DNA of 64,000 nt, from positions 12,079,001 through 12,143,000 of the forward strand of contig JARDYH010000001.1 of NCBI GenBank assembly GCA_029215795.1. Reading direction: 5' to 3'. Positions 4,863 through 61,025 of the stretch are shown here, in pieces (position 1 is the stretch's first letter; each line of letters opens with the position of its first letter). The stretch comes from Anniella stebbinsi. Lineage: Eukaryota > Chordata > Lepidosauria > Squamata > Anniellidae. The notes beneath the pieces were generated by a model that was not told the DNA's origin, did not search any database, and saw nothing but the letters and a program-made list of their open reading frames with translations. A program made the position numbers and the translations under genes.

Positions 4863-5276
4863 TCGGGTGACCGTATAAAAAATGAGGACAGGGCTCATGT
4901 AACTTTAACAGTTGTAGAGAAAAGGGAATTTCAGCCAGTGTCGTTTGTATGCAGTTAGTTCCTGGTTAAATTCCCTCTTCATCACAACCATTAAAGCTGC
5001 AGGAGCCCTGCCTAGCAAGACCAGAAAACAGAAGAGGGCAGTGCTCCTGCAGCTTGAACTTTGTTTTCAATTTAAAGTTTTTATTATTTAGAAACATAGA
5101 TAGAACTCAAACATTACAACCACAAACATTAAAACATACAACATTAAAATGGACTGTTGTGACGAAGAGGGCATTTCACCAGGTGCTGCATGCAGACAAC
5201 ACCTGCTGAAATTCTCTTTCAAATACAATTGTTAAAGACACAGCAGCCCTGTCCTTCTTTCCACAGGGTCACCCTA
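4863..5276. mobile_element. Palindromic hAT-like MITE, copy 1 (with internal extra segment)
   Basis: Ends read TTCGGGTGACC and GGTCACCCTA. They are flanked by CCAGATGT (4855-4862) and CCGGATGT (5277-5284), an 8-bp target duplication with one mismatch. The two halves are inverted relatives of each other: each contains an 'actttaacagttgt' type word and 'gaatttcaccagg' or its complement. This copy is 414 bp against 320 bp for copies at 7444 and 59226, because about 90 bp of A-rich sequence (about 5063-5154) lies in one arm. Eight-bp duplications are characteristic of the hAT superfamily. No coding capacity. Confidence 0.75.
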
Positions 5277-7121: not shown

Positions 7122-7261
7122 TGGCTTAGTTCGGATGACACTTTAGGCAACAGAGGGGTTAATAACACACTCATCGTGCATTATGTTTCCGGTACTTGCC
7201 ACACCACATGTTGCCCCTCCCCCGTCACATGGCTGAAAGTCCCGTGTCCTTCTGGGCTGCT

Positions 7262-7292
7262 CTTCCCTCCCCCTCCCCCTCCCCCTCCCCCA
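7262..7292. repeat. (CCCTCC)n-like C-rich tract
   Basis: A C-rich hexamer-like run inside the transposon; it explains the poly-Pro and poly-Gly open frames that cross this point on the two strands. Confidence 0.8.
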
Positions 7293-7443
7293 GTCCTCCG
7301 GCCATATCCCATGATGCACCGCAAATTCTGCCAGCTGTATAGGAGTGGCTGGGTTTTTTTTACGCCACTCCAGCTGGAGAACTCTATGACTGACTGGAAC
7401 AGTACATGGAGAGAGGGGGGTTCCTGGCACACGACACTTTAAA

Positions 7444-7763
7444 TAGGGTGACCAGATAAAATCCAGGTCAGGGTTCATGTAACTTTAACAGTTGTAGAGA
7501 AAAGGGAATTTCAGATGGTGTCATTTGTATGCAATTAGTTCCTGGTGAAATTCCCTCTGCATCACAACAGTTAAAGGTGCAGGCACTATACTAGAGTGAC
7601 CATATACAAAAGAAGGCAGGGCCCCTGCAACTTTAACTGTTGTGATGAAGAGGGAATTTCACCAGGAACTAATTGCATACAAATGACACTGGCTGAAATT
7701 CCCTTTTCTCTACAACTGTTAAAGTTACATGAGCCCTGACCTGGATTTTATCTGGTCACCCTA
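7444..7763. mobile_element. Palindromic hAT-like MITE, copy 2, with perfect 8-bp target duplication
   Basis: The element runs TAGGGTGACC...GGTCACCCTA, exactly 320 bp, between two copies of ACTTTAAA (7436-7443 and 7764-7771). Its two halves are inverted relatives meeting near 7590. The related element at about 9424-9845 contains the uninterrupted text 'cacactttaaacaa' at the corresponding point (about 9665-9680), so the insertion can be proven by an empty site within this window. The 8-bp duplication and short CAGGG-like ends point to the hAT superfamily. Confidence 0.88.
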
Positions 7764-7955
7764 ACTTTAAACAATGGATTTCGGGATAAGCAACTGAGCA
7801 GCCCATTGTTTTTCCCCATTGTTTAAGTGCCCGAAATAGCGTACTGCCAGTTGTGTGTGTGTTGTGTGCTGCCTGCCACACAACACAATAAGCAACACAA
7901 CTGACGGTTGATTCCCCACCCCTCCGTTGATTATTGTGTCATCCGAACTAAGCCA

Positions 7956-8617: not shown

Positions 8618-8922
8618 TAGGCTGAACATATGAAAAGGAGGACAGGGCTCCTGTATCTTTAATGGTTGCACAGCAAAAAGAATTTCAGCAGGTGTCATTT
8701 GTATGCATGAAGCACCTGGTGAAATTCCCTCTTCATCAAAACAGTTAAAGCTGTAGGACCAGATACAGAAAAGGGCAAGGCTCCTGCAGCTTTAACTGTT
8801 GTGATGAAGAGGGAATTTCACCAGGTGCTGTTTGCATACAAATGACTCCTGCTGAAATTCTCTTTAAAATACAATTGTTAAAGATACAGAAGACCTGTCC
8901 TCCTTTCCATATGATCACCGTA
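8618..8922. mobile_element. Palindromic hAT-like MITE, copy 3
   Basis: The same inverted architecture as 7444-7763: 'ggctgaacatatgaaaagg' at the left, 'gaatttcagcaggtgtc' and 'gtgaaattccctcttcatc' internally, and the complement of these on the right up to 'catatgatcacc'. No clear target duplication remains, which together with the divergence suggests an older copy. Confidence 0.7.
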
Positions 8923-9425: not shown

Positions 9426-9850
9426 GAGCCTGCCACACAACATGTTGCCCCTCCCCCCATCGCATGGCTGAAAGTCCCGGTGTCCTTCTGGGCTGCTGCA
9501 TCTCCTCCCTCCCACCTCCCTCAGTTCTCCGGCTGTATCCCATCATTCACTGCAAGTTCTGCCAGCTTTATTGGAGCAGCCAGGGTTTTTTCTGCTGCTC
9601 CGGCCAGCAAACTCTATGACCGAGTGGAATAATACACAGAGAGAGGGGAGTTCCCTCCACACAACACTTTAAACAACGGATTTTGGGATAAACAACATGC
9701 AAGCCCGTTGTTTTTCTCCATTGTTTAATTGCCCAAAATAGCGTACCATCAGTTTTGTGTGCATTGTGTGTTGCCCTCCACACGACACAATATGCAACAC
9801 AACTGATGGTTGCCTCTTCTCCCCTCTGTTGATTATCGTGTTATACACTA
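9424..9850. mobile_element. Partial paralogue of the 7122 transposon, with the empty MITE site
   Basis: It matches the body of 7122-7955 ('catgttgcccctcccccc', 'ccagcaaactctatgacc', 'aacaatgg'-like words, 'gtgtgcattgtgtgttgc') but lacks the left end and has no 320-bp insertion after 'actttaaa'. The right end is degraded ('gattatcgtgttataca'). Confidence 0.7.
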
Positions 9851-12027: not shown

Positions 12028-12160
12028 GTGTCTCTTCTCAAACCTAGAACCCATATGTGGAGGGCTGTTGCAGACCAACCTGAAGGTACATCCCCATTCT
12101 CTGCTGACCAATAGCTCCCAAAAGAATTCTCAGTTATTTCCAAGGAGAATGTCAAGCACT

Positions 12161-12960
12161 GGAAACAGCCCTAGCTACTACCCTAGTTGTTTATTGTTAT
12201 TATTACTATTATTATTCACTGGAAACAGCCCTAGCTTCTACCCTAAATGATAATAATAATAATAAGGCACCGGAAACAGCCCTAGCTACTACCCTAAATT
12301 GTTATTAATATTATTATTATTAATTGGAAACAGCCCTAGCTATTACCCTAAATAATAATAATAATAATAATAAGGCACCGGAAACAGCCCTAGCTACTAC
12401 CCTAAATTGTTATTATTATTATTAGTAATTGGAAACAGCCCTAGCTATTACTCTAAATAATAATAATAAAATTAATAATAATAAGGCACCGGAAACAGCC
12501 CTAGCTACTACCCTAAATTGTTATTATTATTATTATTATTATTAATTGGAAACAGCCCTAGCTATTACCCTAAATAATAATAATAATAAGGCACCGGAAA
12601 CAGCCCTAGCTACTACCCTAAATTGTTATTATTATTATTATTAATTGGAAACAGCACTAGCTATTACCCTAAATAATAATAATAATAATAAGGCACCGGA
12701 AACAGCCCTAGCTACTACCCTAAATTGTTATTATTATTATTATTATTAATTGGAAACAGCCCTAGCTATTACCCTAAATAATAATAATAATAATAATAAG
12801 GCACTGGAAACAGCCCTAGCTATTATTATTATTATTATTATTATTATTCATTGGAAAGAGCACTAGCTACTACCCTAATATGTTGTTGTTGTTGTTGTTG
12901 TTGTTGTTAGGCACTGAAGAGAGAACTAGATACTACCCTGGTTGTTGTTGTTGCTATTAT
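12161..12960. repeat. Compound minisatellite with alternating TTA and TAA arrays
   Basis: About 15 copies of a ggaaacagccctagct core start at 12161, 12221, 12272, 12326, 12380, 12431, 12491, 12548, 12596, 12647, 12698, 12752, 12806, 12853 and a decayed one near 12915. From 12272 to 12806 two unit types alternate. One has 'ggcaccgg...ctactaccc' and is followed by (TTA)n; the other has 'aattgg...ctattaccc' and is followed by (TAA)n, giving a higher-order period of about 105-118 bp. The 3' end passes into (TTG)n. It ends about 300 bp before the presumed promoter. Confidence 0.92.
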
Positions 12961-13083
12961 TATTATTGTTATTAGCAGCAGTAGCAGCAAACATGACCCA
13001 TTCTGCACAGCCTTCGATGCCTTCGCCAGTTTTTCGTAAGGCTGAAAGCAGCAGCAGCAGCACCCTTTAGGACGAAAGGGGAG

Positions 13084-13105
13084 AAAACACACACACACAC
13101 ACACT
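13084..13105. repeat. (AC)n microsatellite
   Basis: A short CA run between the minisatellite and the CpG-rich promoter block. Confidence 0.85.
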
Positions 13106-13119
13106 TTTTATTATTGAAA

Positions 13120-13340
13120 AAAAGGAGGGGGGAAATCCCCTCCCTCCTCCTTCCCCCCTCCCCTCCCCCCTCATTTGCATCCCCCTCCACTCCCCGCCCC
13201 CTTTGCAGTGATGTCAGTCCCGGCGAGGACTTGCCGGCAGTGTTGGGGGAAAGCGGAGTTCAGACGGCGGCAGTCGCAGGCGCGGAGCGGATGCGAGCGC
13301 GGCGTGGAGCCGGAGCAGCGGCGGCAGGCGGTCGGTCGGT
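13120..13340 (+). promoter_or_regulatory. Presumed CpG-island promoter
   Basis: CT-rich sequence gives way abruptly to CpG-rich DNA. A perfect octamer motif ATTTGCAT lies at 13173-13180, a GC box CCCCGCCCC at 13192-13200 and a CRE-like tgatgtcag at about 13208-13216. There is no TATA box in a plausible place, which is usual for CpG-island promoters with dispersed start sites. Direction is inferred from the consensus splice donor at 14254/14255 on the + strand. A divergent transcript cannot be excluded. Confidence 0.6.
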
Positions 13341-13633
13341 CGTGGCTGCGGCGGCGGCAGGAGCAGGGGCAGCCCTCGCCGGCTCCGGCTGTCCAGGTCG
13401 CCTCCGGGGAGAGCCTCGCGGATCGAGGCGGCTCTAGGGCAGGGGACTCCCTTTCCCCTCTCCGCTGGGGCGGGGGGACTAGATCGCCTGGCTTTGGCTG
13501 CCGCTGCTCCCTACCCCCCCCCCCCCCCCCCACACGCACACCCCCTCCAGCGGCCAAGCCCCTCGAGGGGGCTCGTTTCTGCCCGACGAAGAACGCTTTA
13601 AACGTCTCGGCGACTGCAGGAAAACAACCCCGA

Positions 13634-13672
13634 GGATTCTCCTCTTCTTCCTCCTCCTCCTCCTCCTCCTCC
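13634..13672. repeat. (TCC)n tract in the leader
   Basis: Near-perfect TCC/TTC triplets; the poly-Ser and poly-Arg frames over it are translations of this tract. Confidence 0.9.
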
Positions 13673-14117
13673 TAAGTTGCATCTCTCCTTGTGCAAGTTA
13701 AAAAGAAGGGGGTGGAAAAGCCACCCGCCAGCGGCTGTCCGGACGCGGCGTCATCCGCTTCTTCTTCTGCCTCTTCTGCTGCTTCTTCAAGCGCTTCTCT
13801 GGGCATCGGAGAGGAGAAAAGAGCAAGGTGGTTTCACTAGTCTGGCACTTCTATTTTTAAAGACACCCCCAACTTGCCCGTTCCACCCCCCACGACTGCA
13901 AAGCGAGGTGTTCTTGAATAACTCTCAACTTAGGATCTCTTTCCTCACGCCCTCCTCTTCCACTCTGAGAAGGGGATCAAAAAAAGAGAGCATCCCTTCA
14001 AACAACAGTCCCAGGACTTCGCCTTTGATCAAGCCATCTCGCTTTTTTGTCCTAGACTATTTCCTCCCTCCCTCCCGTCTTCCTCTAAATTTTGAGCAGA
14101 ACAAGGATTTTCCCCCT

Positions 14118-21818: not shown

Positions 21819-22416
21819 TAAAACAAATCTGTTTGCTCCATGATATTCTTCATTATGGCTTTCTTTTCTAAAAGTGTAACAAAACCACAATTTTCCCCTG
21901 TGGCTTTATTCATTGTTTCCCACACTAAATTTGAACCAATGCCACTAAAGGAATGCATTATAGTTAAAATCCCAACAAGCTCTAAATCACAAGTTGGAAT
22001 ACTCAATTGTGTGTTACAGTTTGCCCCCTACCCTCGGTGGTTCTGACTTTGGTTGGACTAGTGTGTTGGCTGGGGCAAATCTTTACTCAACAGCAGCTCT
22101 AGAAATAAGCAACAGCAAATCTGCTCATTGAAACATAGAATGGCTTAATTGCATGGAGGCTCTGTGTCTCACCCATTGCTGCAGGATGTGCAGTTCGGGG
22201 AATCAAAATATGTTCTGTAAGTATGATGGGCCCTGTGGCACATCAAGTGCAGATGTTACAGGCCCTCACCTGCCATGCACATGGCTTCGCCTATGCTCAA
22301 AGTGGCTCTTTGGACTCCAAATGTCGGTTTTATTCCAGGACATGCGAGCGTGGGCCAATCTTAACATAGCAGATTCTGTGTGGCTGAATTGCCACTCGGG
22401 GTAATAAAATTCTACA

Positions 22417-29561: not shown

Positions 29562-29569
29562 ATGGATTC
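29562..29569. other. Left target-site duplication of the large palindromic element
   Basis: ATGGATTC, identical to 32556-32563. Confidence 0.85.
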
Positions 29570-29582
29570 TAGGGATGTGCAC

Positions 29583-29679
29583 TGACCCCCCGGATCGGAT
29601 CGGATAGCGGATCGGAATCGGACCTGGGGGGTCGGATCGGATCGGATCGGAGGCTGGTCGGATCGGATCGGACCAGATG
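29583..29679. repeat. Left subterminal (CGGAT)n array
   Basis: Degenerate CGGAT pentamers, CpG-rich, between the left end and the palindrome arm. Confidence 0.85.
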
Positions 29680-29745
29680 TCCGATCCGGATCGGACGCCA
29701 TTTTGAATGCTTTTTCCCATAGCCAAGTATTGTTTTACAAAAACG

Positions 29746-30790
29746 CCTATAACTTTTTCATTTTTAAAGATAGAAGGATGAAACTTGGGCACATTGTAGA
29801 CTGGTTAGGGGTAGTTATCTGTGAGAAATTTCAGAAAGATTGGTGCATGCGTTTTGTGGCAATTAATTTTTTAATAAATACCCAGGAATGCCTATAACTT
29901 TGTCATTTTTAAAGTTACACACATGAAACTTTGCCACATTGTAGGGGGTACCTTGGGACCTATGTGTGTGAAATTTCAGAAACGTAGGTGCTTGTCTTGT
30001 GTGGCAATTAATTTTTAGAAAAATGGGTAGTAGTGGGGTAAATACAGTTACGCCTCCCATTTTTTTATTTTTGAAGATACAAACAGGAAACTTGGGCACA
30101 TTACAGGTACCACTTGCCTTGATATGTGTGTGAAATTTCAGAAACATTGGAGCTTTCCTTGTGTGGCAATTAATTTTTGAAACAATGAGGAAAGAAACAC
30201 CTATAACTTTGTCATTTTTAAAGTTACACACATGAAACTTTGCCACATTGTAGGTGGTACCTTGGGACCCATGTGTGTGAAATTTCGGAAACGTAGGTGC
30301 TTGCCTTGTGTGGCAATTAATTTTTTAATAAATACCCAGGAATGCCTATAACTTTGTCATTTTTAAAGTTACACACATGAAACTTTGCCACATTGTAGGC
30401 GGTACCTTGGGACCTATGTGTGTGAAATTTCGGAAACGTAGGTGCTTGCCTTGTGTGGCAATTAATTTTAGAAAAATGGGTAGTGGTGGGGTAAATACAG
30501 TTACGCCTCCCACTTTTTTATTTTTGAAGATACAAACAGGAAACATGGGCACATTACAGGTACCACTTGGCTTGATATGTGTGTAAAATTTCAGACAGCT
30601 GGGTCCAGGCATGTGGTGGCAAGGTATTTTTGAAACAATGAGGAAAGAAACGCCTATAACTTTTTTATTTTAAAAGTTAGAAGTCTGAACATTGCTCACT
30701 TTGTAGATGGGTTAGGGGTAGATATGTGTCAGAAATTTCAGAATTATAGGTCCAGGCATTTGATGGCTATGGAATTTTTAAATTACATGT
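29746..30790. repeat. Tandem ~150-bp repeats of the left arm, three-unit higher order
   Basis: Units begin at 29746, 29891, 30053, 30200, 30345, 30506 and 30653 (spacings 145, 162, 147, 145, 161, 147). Shared words are 'cctataacttt', 'cacattgtag', 'gaaatttcagaaa' and 'gtggcaattaatttt'. Units 1-3 resemble units 4-6 in order, so a three-unit block of about 454 bp has been duplicated. The complement fills 31318-32363 of the right arm. Confidence 0.85.
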
Positions 30791-30839
30791 TTCAAAAAAA
30801 TTTCTACAGAGGCCAGGTCTTCCCCTCCCGCTTCCCGCG

Positions 30840-31047
30840 AAGAAAAGGAAACACTCTCTCGTCTCGATCCCTTTGATCCTTGCTAGTAATATCCATTACA
30901 GGGCTCGTGTTTCCTTTCCTACTTTCACTTTTCAAGCAGAACGGCTGAGCCTAGCTGAGTTTTGCAGCCATGCGTGCAAGGAAGGATCACTCTGGTCTCG
31001 ATCCCTTTGATCCTTGGTAGTATCCATTACAGGGCTCGTGTCTGCTT
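30840..31047. repeat. Inner part of left arm with duplicated segment
   Basis: 'tctcgatccctttgatcctt' followed by 'tccattacagggctcgtgt' occurs twice (about 30862-30911 and 31000-31043) and is mirrored in the right arm. So the segment exists in four copies in 400 bp. GC content is higher than the surrounding arms. Confidence 0.8.
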
Positions 31048-31317
31048 TCACTTTGTACTCAAGCAGACACGAGCCCTGTAATGGATACTACCAAGGATCA
31101 AAGGGATCGAGACCAGAGTGATCCTTCCTTGCACGCATGGCTGCAAAACTCAGCTAGGCTCAGCCGTTCTGCTTGAAAAGTGAAAGTAGGAAAGGAAACA
31201 CGAGCCCTGTAATGGATACTACTAGCAAGGATCAAAGGGATCGAGACGAGAGAGTGTTTCCTTTTCTTCGCGGGAAGCGGGAGGGGAAGACCTGGCCTCT
31301 GTAGAAATTTTTTTGAA

Positions 31318-32363
31318 ACATGTAATTTAAAAATTCCATAGCCATCAAATGCCTGGACCTATAATTCTGAAATTTCTGACACATATCTACCCCTAACCCA
31401 TCTACAAAGTGAGCAATGTTCAGACTTCTAACTTTTAAAATAAAAAAGTTATAGGCGTTTCTTTCCTCATTGTTTCAAAAATACCTTGCCACCACATGCC
31501 TGGACCCAGCTGTCTGAAATTTTACACACATATCAAGCCAAGTGGTACCTGTAATGTGCCCATGTTTCCTGTTTGTATCTTCAAAAATAAAAAAGTGGGA
31601 GGCGTAACTGTATTTACCCCACCACTACCCATTTTTCTAAAATTAATTGCCACACAAGGCAAGCACCTACGTTTCCGAAATTTCACACACATAGGTCCCA
31701 AGGTACCGCCTACAATGTGGCAAAGTTTCATGTGTGCAACTTTAAAAATGACAAAGTTATAGGCATTCCTGGGTATTTATTAAAAAATTAATTGCCACAC
31801 AAGGCAAGCACCTACGTTTCCGAAATTTCACACACATGGGTCCCAAGGTACCACCTACAATGTGGCAAAGTTTCATGTGTGTAACTTTAAAAATGACAAA
31901 GTTATAGGTGTTTCTTTCCTCATTGTTTCAAAAATTAATTGCCACACAAGGAAAGCTCCAATGTTTCTGAAATTTCACACACATATCAAGGCAAGTGGTA
32001 CCTGTAATGTGCCCAAGTTTCCTGTTTGTATCTTCAAAAATAAAAAAATGGGAGGCGTAACTGTATTTACCCCACTACTACCCATTTTTCTAAAAATTAA
32101 TTGCCACACAAGACAAGCACCTACGTTTCTGAAATTTCACACACATAGGTCCCAAGGTACCCCCTACAATGTGGCAAAGTTTCATGTGTGTAACTTTAAA
32201 AATGACAAAGTTATAGGCATTCCTGGGTATTTATTAAAAAATTAATTGCCACAAAATGCATGCACCAATCTTTCTGAAATTTCTCACAGATAACTACCCC
32301 TAACCAGTCTACAATGTGCCCAAGTTTCATCCTTCTATCTTTAAAAATGAAAAAGTTATAGGC
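31318..32363. repeat. Tandem ~150-bp repeats of the right arm (inverted)
   Basis: Complement of the left-arm array, with very few substitutions. Its + strand frames (88 and 127 codons) repeat Lys-Phe-His-rich segments every ~50 residues and are by-products of the tandem structure. Confidence 0.85.
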
Positions 32364-32428
32364 GTTTTTGTAAAACAATACTTGGCTATGGGAAAAAGCA
32401 TTCAAAATGGCGTCCGATCCGGATCGGA

Positions 32429-32542
32429 CCTCATCGGATCGGATCGGATCGGATCGGAGGTTGTCCGGATCGGATCGGATCGGATCGGATTTTCCCGATT
32501 TTGGGTCGGATCGGATTCGGATCGTGGATCGGATCCGATCCG
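32429..32542. repeat. Right subterminal (CGGAT)n array
   Basis: CGGAT pentamers in the same direction as the left array, not inverted, so this part lies outside the palindrome. Confidence 0.85.
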
Positions 32543-32555
32543 ATGCACACCCCTA

Positions 32556-32563
32556 ATGGATTC
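32556..32563. other. Right target-site duplication of the large palindromic element
   Basis: ATGGATTC, identical to 29562-29569. Confidence 0.85.
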
Positions 32564-47175: not shown

Positions 47176-47530
47176 CAGGGGTGAGCAACATCCTCCCCCT
47201 GCTTTTCCCATTGCCTCCACTGCTGAAGCAACCCCCCCCCCCCCGGATGATTTTGCTTGAAATCAAGGTGTGTAGGGAGTGTACACCTCGTTTGTAAACA
47301 GAATCCTTTTCCTGGAAGCATCCCAAAGATTCTCTTCTGGTTCCAAACAGGGTGTCTGCTTGCCGCATGCCTTGTTTTCAAGTTAAATCAGCACACACAC
47401 ACACCGCTATTGCCACATCAATTTTAACAGCAAATTAGTTTTGGGGGTGGCAGGGGGAGCAGTATCCATTGTATTCTGAGGGCTGTGGGGGACATGCAGC
47501 CGCCTGGCCCTTGGAAGTTCCCCATCCCTG
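47176..47530. mobile_element. hAT-like non-autonomous element with 8-bp target duplication
   Basis: Ends CAGGGGTGAGCAAC and GTTCCCCATCCCTG are flanked by TTTTAGGG at 47168-47175 and 47531-47538, a perfect 8-bp duplication. The 355-bp inside contains a C homopolymer and no transposase. CAGGGG ends and 8-bp duplications are typical of hAT. Confidence 0.8.
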
Positions 47531-59225: not shown

Positions 59226-59545
59226 TAGGCTGACCATATTAAAAGGAGGACAGGACTCATGTAGCTTTAACAGTTGTAGAGAAAAGGGAATTTCAGCCAG
59301 TGTCATTTGTATGCAATTAGTTCCTGGTGAAATTCCCTCTTCATCACAACAGTTAAAGTTGCAGGGGCCCTGCCTTCTTTTGTATATGGTCAATCTAGTA
59401 TAATGCCTGCAACTTTAACTGTTGTGATGAAGAGGGAATTTCACCAGGAACTAATTGCATACAAATGACCCTGGCTGAAATTCCTTTTTCTCTACAACAG
59501 TTAAAGTTACATGAGCCCTGTCCTCCTTTTCATATGGTCAGCCAA
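59226..59545. mobile_element. Palindromic hAT-like MITE, copy 4, with perfect 8-bp target duplication
   Basis: 320 bp, TAGGCTGACC...GGTCAGCCAA, between CTTTGAAT (59218-59225) and CTTTGAAT (59546-59553). It closely matches copy 2 at 7444 in length and text ('acagttgtagagaaaaggga', 'cagttaaagttgcagggg'). No coding capacity. Confidence 0.88.
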
Positions 59546-60634: not shown

Positions 60635-61025
60635 TAGGGATGTGCATATCAGCAAAACTCTAGTTTGGTGTGGTAGTCTGAAAATCAAAGCTCGTTCTGA
60701 TTGGTGCTGTGTCAGATTCCAAGCTTTCTTCACACCCAAATGTGTGCGCATTTCCCTGTGCATTTTTTAAAAACGTGTGCATCAATTGTGCACATTTTTG
60801 AAAGGCATGCAGTTTTTTCTCATTGACTGAAGCGTTTTTGTGCATTTTCTTTTCAAATATATGCATTTTTTTCCCAAATGCATTTGCTGTTGTTAAGCAA
60901 ATAGCACACCACGTTCTGAAATATACAGATAGCGACTGTTGATTGCATTCAGGTCTGTGCTCACTTCCAAAACTCAGGAAATTCTGGTCAGAAACAAACT
61001 GAAATGAATTTCTCATGCATCCCTA
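60635..61025. mobile_element. hAT-like element with TAGGGATGTGCA ends, decayed
   Basis: Ends TAGGGATGTGCA and TGCATCCCTA match the ends of the large palindrome at 29570. The inside has repeated 'gtgcattttt' words, A/T-rich, and no transposase. I could not find an 8-bp target duplication, so the boundaries are approximate. Confidence 0.5.

What the first reader, a model, noticed from the sequence alone, without database searches (positions are those of the whole stretch)
29562..32563. Nearly 3-kb palindromic transposon with a perfect 8-bp target duplication
ATGGATTC flanks a 2,986-bp element whose inside is two 1,368-bp arms, equal to the base, around a 13-bp spacer (31048-31060). I noticed only isolated mismatches. 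A palindrome this size is very unstable and hard to assemble, and such identity means it is very young or is kept identical by conversion between arms. hAT-like ends with this arm length and no transposase frame suggest an undescribed foldback family. Spacer symmetry and length equality were checked by hand from coordinates.
Basis: partly seen in the sequence, partly recalled or inferred. Interest (0 to 1): 0.85.

Follow-up and report, generated by a model that had tools for sequence, protein, structure and literature searches.

The report
Young palindromic jumping-gene copy, hAT-like
This is a 3-kb stretch of mobile DNA with no gene of its own found that reads almost the same on both strands; scars at its centre and edges suggest that a DNA-repair accident copied one half back on itself inside an ordinary transposon.

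Summary
An exact 8-bp duplication (ATGGATTC) flanks a 2,986-bp element (29570-32555). Its core is two inverted arms of 1,369 bp, not 1,368, with 3 mismatches (99.78%) around a 13-bp spacer. The outer 109 and 126 bp are not mirrored beyond the 12-bp tips: CGGAT arrays run in the same direction at both ends.

No transposase match was found. Tips and 8-bp duplication fit a non-autonomous hAT-like element.

Two features suggest how the palindrome arose. A direct repeat in the left arm runs through the spacer into the first 7 bases of the right arm, so the left arm is probably the template and the right arm its copy, primed at a 7-bp inverted repeat with a 13-nt loop. The mirror ends on a perfect 18-bp palindrome at the CGGAT array. 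I infer foldback priming during repair inside an older hAT copy, the copy rejoining the right end through array homology.

Foldback elements with tandem-repeat arms are described in Drosophila (Galileo, Tetris) and, for hAT, in Atlantic cod: a new member of a known kind. Whether it is a multi-copy family is untested (the genome search did not complete), and youth is not separated from arm-to-arm conversion.

The parts
29562..29569 (.). left target site duplication ATGGATTC
29570..29581 (+). left tip TAGGGATGTGCA
29582..29678 (+). left subterminal region, CGGAT arrays, not mirrored on the right; 9 CGGAT, 0 ATCCG
29679..31047 (+). left arm, 1,369 bp (probable template)
29679..29696 (.). perfect 18-bp palindrome GTCCGATCCGGATCGGAC at the outer edge of the left arm
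29742..30789 (+). seven tandem monomers of 142-163 bp, higher-order period about 454 bp
30856..30943 (+). inner unit A
30990..31067 (+). inner unit B, which runs through the spacer into the first 7 bases of the right arm
31041..31047 (+). TCTGCTT, left half of the proposed 7-bp priming repeat
   Evidence: role inferred
31048..31060 (+). 13-bp spacer TCACTTTGTACTC
31061..31067 (+). AAGCAGA, right half of the proposed priming repeat
   Evidence: role inferred
31061..32429 (-). right arm, 1,369 bp (probable copy)
31319..32366 (-). mirror of the seven-monomer array
   Evidence: coordinates by reflection
32412..32429 (.). second copy of the 18-bp palindrome at the outer edge of the right arm
32430..32543 (+). 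right subterminal region, CGGAT arrays in the same direction as on the left; 13 CGGAT, 2 ATCCG
32544..32555 (-). right tip (TAGGGGTGTGCA on the minus strand)
32556..32563 (.). right target site duplication ATGGATTC

Best explanation
A non-autonomous hAT-like transposon whose interior was replaced by an inverted copy of its own left half. Steps: (1) an element carried the tips, the CGGAT subtermini, the tandem array and two copies of an inner unit, each half once; (2) a break arose inside it, or repair of an excision gap was abandoned there; (3) a 3' end finishing in AAGCAGA folded back onto TCTGCTT 13 nt upstream and primed synthesis back along the left half; (4) at the CGGAT array, marked by an 18-bp palindrome, the new strand left the left-half template and joined the original right end; (5) the result kept two distinct ends, so that a transposase supplied elsewhere could still move it, or it formed at this very site after insertion. 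Shown here: the target duplication, the arms, the unmirrored ends, the unit that crosses the centre. Inferred: steps 2 to 5 and the hAT label (tips and TSD length only).
For: TSD, tips and arms. No transposase match in the 10 frames scanned. Unit B crosses the centre: 21 of 22 aligned bases equal around a 4-base gap, score 31, reached by 0 of 5,000 base shuffles and by 0 of 8,709 window 28-mers taken outside the element; spacer plus 7 bases alone, score 24, 0 of 5,000; the opposite strand scores 14. Ends align directly (44 of 50, score 70) rather than inverted (29; best of 500 shuffles 25). The array is older than the mirror, since the right arm repeats all seven monomers in reverse with 3 differences in all. 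[quoted passage not shown] stems as short as 4 bp, and resolution mainly by homology-mediated secondary rearrangement (PMC7467729, passages); gap filling by template switching in animal TIR elements, 208 of 370 of them hAT (PMC8277862, passages; the 370 from its abstract in the listing); left and right ends of the hAT element Hermes are bound differently (PMC10368747, passages).
Against: No single-armed relative was seen that would prove the ancestor; the genome search did not complete. The original sequence at the right junction is unknown, so homology at the outer joint is inferred. The 13-nt loop is a little longer than the 3-12 bp quoted for the yeast mutants. AAGCAGA at the start of the right arm is also simply the mirror of TCTGCTT, so only its match to unit A, found after looking, carries the argument. 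The unequal ends could also come from slippage in the arrays after a complete mirroring. The TSD does not follow nTnnnnAn, the preference of Hermes (position 7 is T).
Confidence: 0.6

Rival explanations
1. The palindrome is old and its arms are kept identical by conversion between them; the CGGAT ends escape because arrays slip too fast or lack the homology.
For: A palindromic MITE of about 320 bp in the same window shows sites shared within copies: 6 against 5 of the crossed pattern for copies B and D, 11 to 0 for B and C, 7 to 1 for D and C. Sharp edge between identical arms and unequal ends.
Against: The arms of that MITE still differ by 5-16% in three copies and by 24% in the fourth. Two of the three arm mismatches can be placed, one on each arm, as expected of independent mutation. 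The scars at the centre look fresh.
Confidence: 0.25
2. Head-to-head fusion of two sister copies, followed by a deletion on one side of the centre that left the 13-bp spacer and, separately, re-sorting of the ends.
For: It also predicts that the spacer belongs to one arm.
Against: It needs two events at the centre where foldback priming needs one, and it does not explain by itself why a 7-bp inverted repeat flanks the spacer or why the ends differ.
Confidence: 0.12
3. Same structure, but moved by another superfamily with 8-bp duplications (P, Mutator-like or Merlin; recalled).
For: Foldback elements with 8-bp TSDs are placed in P (Galileo) and Mutator (Tetris).
Against: The tips TAGGGRTGTGCA are hAT-like (recalled); no transposase seen to decide.
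Confidence: 0.12
4. Assembly or library artefact (inverted chimera).
For: Short inverted repeats also seed chimeric reads (general knowledge); no reads were available.
Against: An inverted chimera would run back into the left flank; here a different right end, an exact TSD and three arm mismatches follow.
Confidence: 0.03

Closest known systems
gadMor-hAT-1784, Atlantic cod (PMC12368964; outline and passages read)
   Same: hAT-derived, non-autonomous, no ORF, palindromic consensus; inverted arms of about 600 bp built of 167-169 bp tandem repeats; vertebrate
   Different: arms here are 1,369 bp, 99.78% identical, spacer 13 bp, monomers about 150 bp; no sequence comparison was made; the cod copies studied sit in tandem at inversion breakpoints
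Galileo, Drosophila (P superfamily; PMC4168063 passages; PMC3688188 abstract)
   Same: foldback-like long inverted repeats, in the longest copy with tandem repeats of about 140 bp and no transposase; TSD 7-8 bp
   Different: another superfamily by its transposase; near-identity of the arms around a tiny spacer is not mentioned in the passages seen
Tetris, Drosophila virilis (PMC4079207, passages)
   Same: same layout: flanking domain, tandem-repeat outer domain (units of about 220 bp), inner domain; TIRs up to 1,735 bp; no conserved ORF; TSD 8-10 bp
   Different: variable middle domain; its authors suggest Mutator; insect
Tc4, Caenorhabditis elegans (recalled, nothing read)
   Same: near-perfect palindromic DNA transposon with a short central spacer
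   Different: about half the size, other superfamily and TSD (recalled)
Small palindromic MITE with tips TAGGGTGACCA in this window (7445-7764, 59226-59544 and others)
   Same: palindromic, 8-bp TSDs at two copies, TAGGG tip
   Different: about 320 bp, arms 84-95% identical in three copies and 76% in the fourth, unrelated interior (no hit)

Membership tests
hAT superfamily (non-autonomous) | 8-bp target site duplication | tested here: met
   ATGGATTC on both sides; one site only
hAT superfamily (non-autonomous) | short terminal inverted repeats of hAT type (TAGGG/CAGGG; consensus recalled) | tested here: met
   TAGGGATGTGCA and TAGGGGTGTGCA, 11 of 12 equal
hAT superfamily (non-autonomous) | target preference nTnnnnAn (Hermes, PMC10368747); a preference, not a defining feature | tested here: inconclusive
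   ATGGATTC has T at position 2 but T, not A, at position 7; one site cannot decide
hAT superfamily (non-autonomous) | an autonomous hAT transposase gene with the same ends in the genome | not tested
   The genome search did not complete in 9 tries
Foldback elements | long inverted repeats over most of the element | tested here: met
   2 x 1,369 of 2,986 bp
Foldback elements | tandem repeats inside the inverted repeats (in Galileo in one copy, in Tetris in general) | tested here: met
   seven monomers per arm
Foldback elements | no transposase in the copy | tested here: met
   no Pfam family above cut-off in 10 of the 22 stop-free frames of 60 aa or more overlapping the element; the other 12 and shorter frames were not scanned
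A new palindromic family | several copies with the same structure | not tested
   one copy in the window; genome search not answered; 0 hits in viral and prokaryote contigs, which are not expected to hold it

The most novel reading that the evidence does not exclude
This copy is a readable record of how foldback transposons are born: a 7-bp inverted repeat primed copying of the left half during gap repair inside a hAT element, and array homology let the copy rejoin the right end, so that the mirror-image core sits between two ends that stayed different and usable. Foldback elements in general would then be products of single repair accidents, not of slow lengthening of their inverted repeats.
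Probability: 0.4. Interest if true: 0.6.

Novelty: new member of a known kind. Interest (0 to 1): 0.45.

Why it matters
How foldback transposons arise is not settled; loss of the transposase with lengthening of the inverted repeats, repeatedly in different lineages, has been suggested (as told in the Tetris paper, passages). Here the centre seems to tell template from copy and the edges show where the mirror stops, so a specific repair pathway can be tested against relatives. A 1.37-kb near-perfect inverted repeat with a 13-bp spacer is also a natural test object for the stability of palindromes in a vertebrate genome.

Tried and rejected
Assembly artefact: rejected as main reading because of the exact TSD, the different right end and three arm mismatches; no reads were available. 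Coding function: the largest open frames in the arms (two of 153 aa, mirror images) gave no protein relative (one of them searched: 49 candidates, none at E 1 or below) and no Pfam family above cut-off. Structural RNA: 0 Rfam matches at gathering score in the window. Relatives elsewhere: degenerate patterns from the monomer gave 0 hits in viral contigs and 0 in prokaryote genome contigs; these collections are not expected to hold vertebrate repeats. Literature by tip letters: 0 papers hold TAGGGGTGTGCA (the left-tip form TAGGGATGTGCA was not searched). Host gene: Pfam on 10 of 745 stop-free segments of 45 aa or more gave 0 families at E 0.1; the host gene was not identified. The host as a squamate reptile is a guess from a repeat at 22416 recognised from memory; CpG o/e 0.29 fits a vertebrate. 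A date was sketched with recalled rates: 3/1,369 gives about 0.5-1.6 My at 2.2e-9 to 0.7e-9 per site and year; the 95% interval of the divergence is 0.05-0.64%, and conversion would void the date.

Full report
What is there. ATGGATTC at 29562-29569 and again at 32556-32563 flanks 2,986 bp. The element begins TAGGGATGTGCA and ends TGCACACCCCTA; the tips match at 11 of 12 bases. Outward from the centre without gaps, 29679-31047 and 31061-32429 (1,369 bp each) differ at three sites: 29851/32257 (CpG in the left arm), 30371/31737 and 30889/31219, all transitions. The spacer 31048-31060 is 13 bp. The two longest perfect runs are 519 and 517 bp; outside the element the longest perfect inverted match of the window within 3 kb is 64 bp.

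First, the mirror stops at 29679/32429. The outer 109 bp (left) and 126 bp (right) hold CGGAT arrays in the same direction: 9 CGGAT and 0 ATCCG on the left, 13 and 2 on the right, tips left out; 44 of 50 bases align directly, score 70, against 29 inverted and at most 25 in 500 shuffles of the right end. The shuffles destroy the array, so they are a weak null; the direction of the units is the firmer fact. Second, the mirror ends exactly on GTCCGATCCGGATCGGAC, a perfect 18-bp palindrome that occurs in the window only at the two arm edges. Third, each arm is mostly a tandem array: seven monomers of 142-163 bp, 61-98% identical to one another, with a three-monomer period of about 454 bp.

The centre. 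Two direct copies of an inner unit lie in the left arm, A at 30856-30943 and B from 30990. Unit B does not stop at the end of the arm: it runs through the spacer and into the first seven bases of the right arm, as CTTTCACTTT-GTAC-TCAAGCAGA against CTTTCACTTT-TCAAGCAGA in unit A. The score of 31 was reached by 0 of 5,000 base shuffles of the centre and by 0 of 8,709 28-mers from the rest of the window; spacer and seven bases alone score 24 (0 of 5,000); the opposite strand scores 14, which is the heptamer AAGCAGA alone. The stretch of unit A compared was chosen after the self-alignment, so these are checks of a seen match, not a blind test. Read plainly, the natural order runs from the left arm across the centre, and the mirror takes over after AAGCAGA, which pairs with TCTGCTT thirteen bases upstream. 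That is what foldback priming at a short inverted repeat would leave.

Mechanism. In yeast deficient in Mre11 or Sae2, inverted repeats of 5-9 bp with 3-12 bp spacers can drive large palindromic duplications (review PMC7999016, passages); stems can be as short as 4 bp, and foldback inversions are resolved mainly by homology-mediated secondary rearrangements (PMC7467729, passages); two of three inverted duplications from wild-type cells used a 5-bp repeat with a 35-bp spacer (PMC10622511, passages). In animals, gap filling with template switching puts new sequence into TIR transposons, hAT most often (208 of 370), with microhomology at one breakpoint or more in 190 of 281 unique cases (PMC8277862, passages; listing). 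Put together: the left half is copied back on itself, then the copy joins the right end at the CGGAT array. This keeps two different ends. Hermes, a hAT element, is bound very differently at its left and right ends (PMC10368747, passages), so a fully mirrored element might not move well. The joining and its benefit are inference. That paper's title and section heads also speak of two-left-end and two-right-end complexes, so like ends are not ruled out.

Age or conversion. Three differences in 1,369 bp give 0.22% (95% interval 0.05-0.64%). Two of the three can be placed: sister monomers u2 and u4 carry A where the right arm has G (30371/31737), and unit B carries G where the left arm has A (30889/31219), so each arm has changed on its own at least once. 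CpG o/e is 0.46-0.48 in the arms and 0.29 in the window. Against plain youth: a palindromic MITE of about 320 bp in the same window hints at transfer between arms (6 sites shared within copies against 5 of the crossed pattern for copies B and D; 11 to 0 for B and C; 7 to 1 for D and C). With three copies and no tree this is weak. Its arms still differ by 5-16% in three copies and 24% in the fourth. Conversion is not excluded.

Known relatives. Long inverted repeats with tandem repeats inside and no transposase are the plan of foldback elements: Galileo, Tetris and, within hAT and in a vertebrate, gadMor-hAT-1784 of Atlantic cod, with arms of about 600 bp made of 167-169 bp repeats. I therefore call this a new member of a known kind. 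Less usual are the near-identity of 1.37-kb arms around a 13-bp spacer and the readable scars. I saw no paper on this element in ten searches, which cover an open-access library only and were made mostly by general terms; repeat databases were not available.

Limits. One copy only. The search of the window's own genome did not complete in nine tries. The host is not identified. The hAT label rests on tips (consensus recalled) and TSD length, not on a transposase.

Noticed in passing
7445-7764, 59226-59544, 8618-8922, 4864-5276: Small palindromic hAT-like MITE, about 320 bp, tips TAGGGTGACCA; 8-bp TSDs ACTTTAAA and CTTTGAAT at two copies by eye; the copy at 4864-5276 is interrupted by other sequence.
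   Followed up: partly
7197-7942 and 9431-9844: The MITE copy at 7445-7764 sits inside another repeat whose uninterrupted relative lies at 9431-9844, a paralogous empty site; the two matches overlap there by 8 bases (9666-9673).
   Followed up: no
47176-47530: A 355-bp element with tips CAGGGGTG..CATCCCTG and an exact 8-bp TSD TTTTAGGG.
   Followed up: no
60635-61025: A repeat-like stretch that starts with the same 12-mer TAGGGATGTGCA and ends CATCCCTA; no TSD seen.
   Followed up: partly
12156-12877: Minisatellite, 6.8 copies of a 105-bp unit with trinucleotide runs, just upstream of a CpG-rich stretch at 13001-14000 (GC 0.61, CpG o/e 0.72).
   Followed up: no
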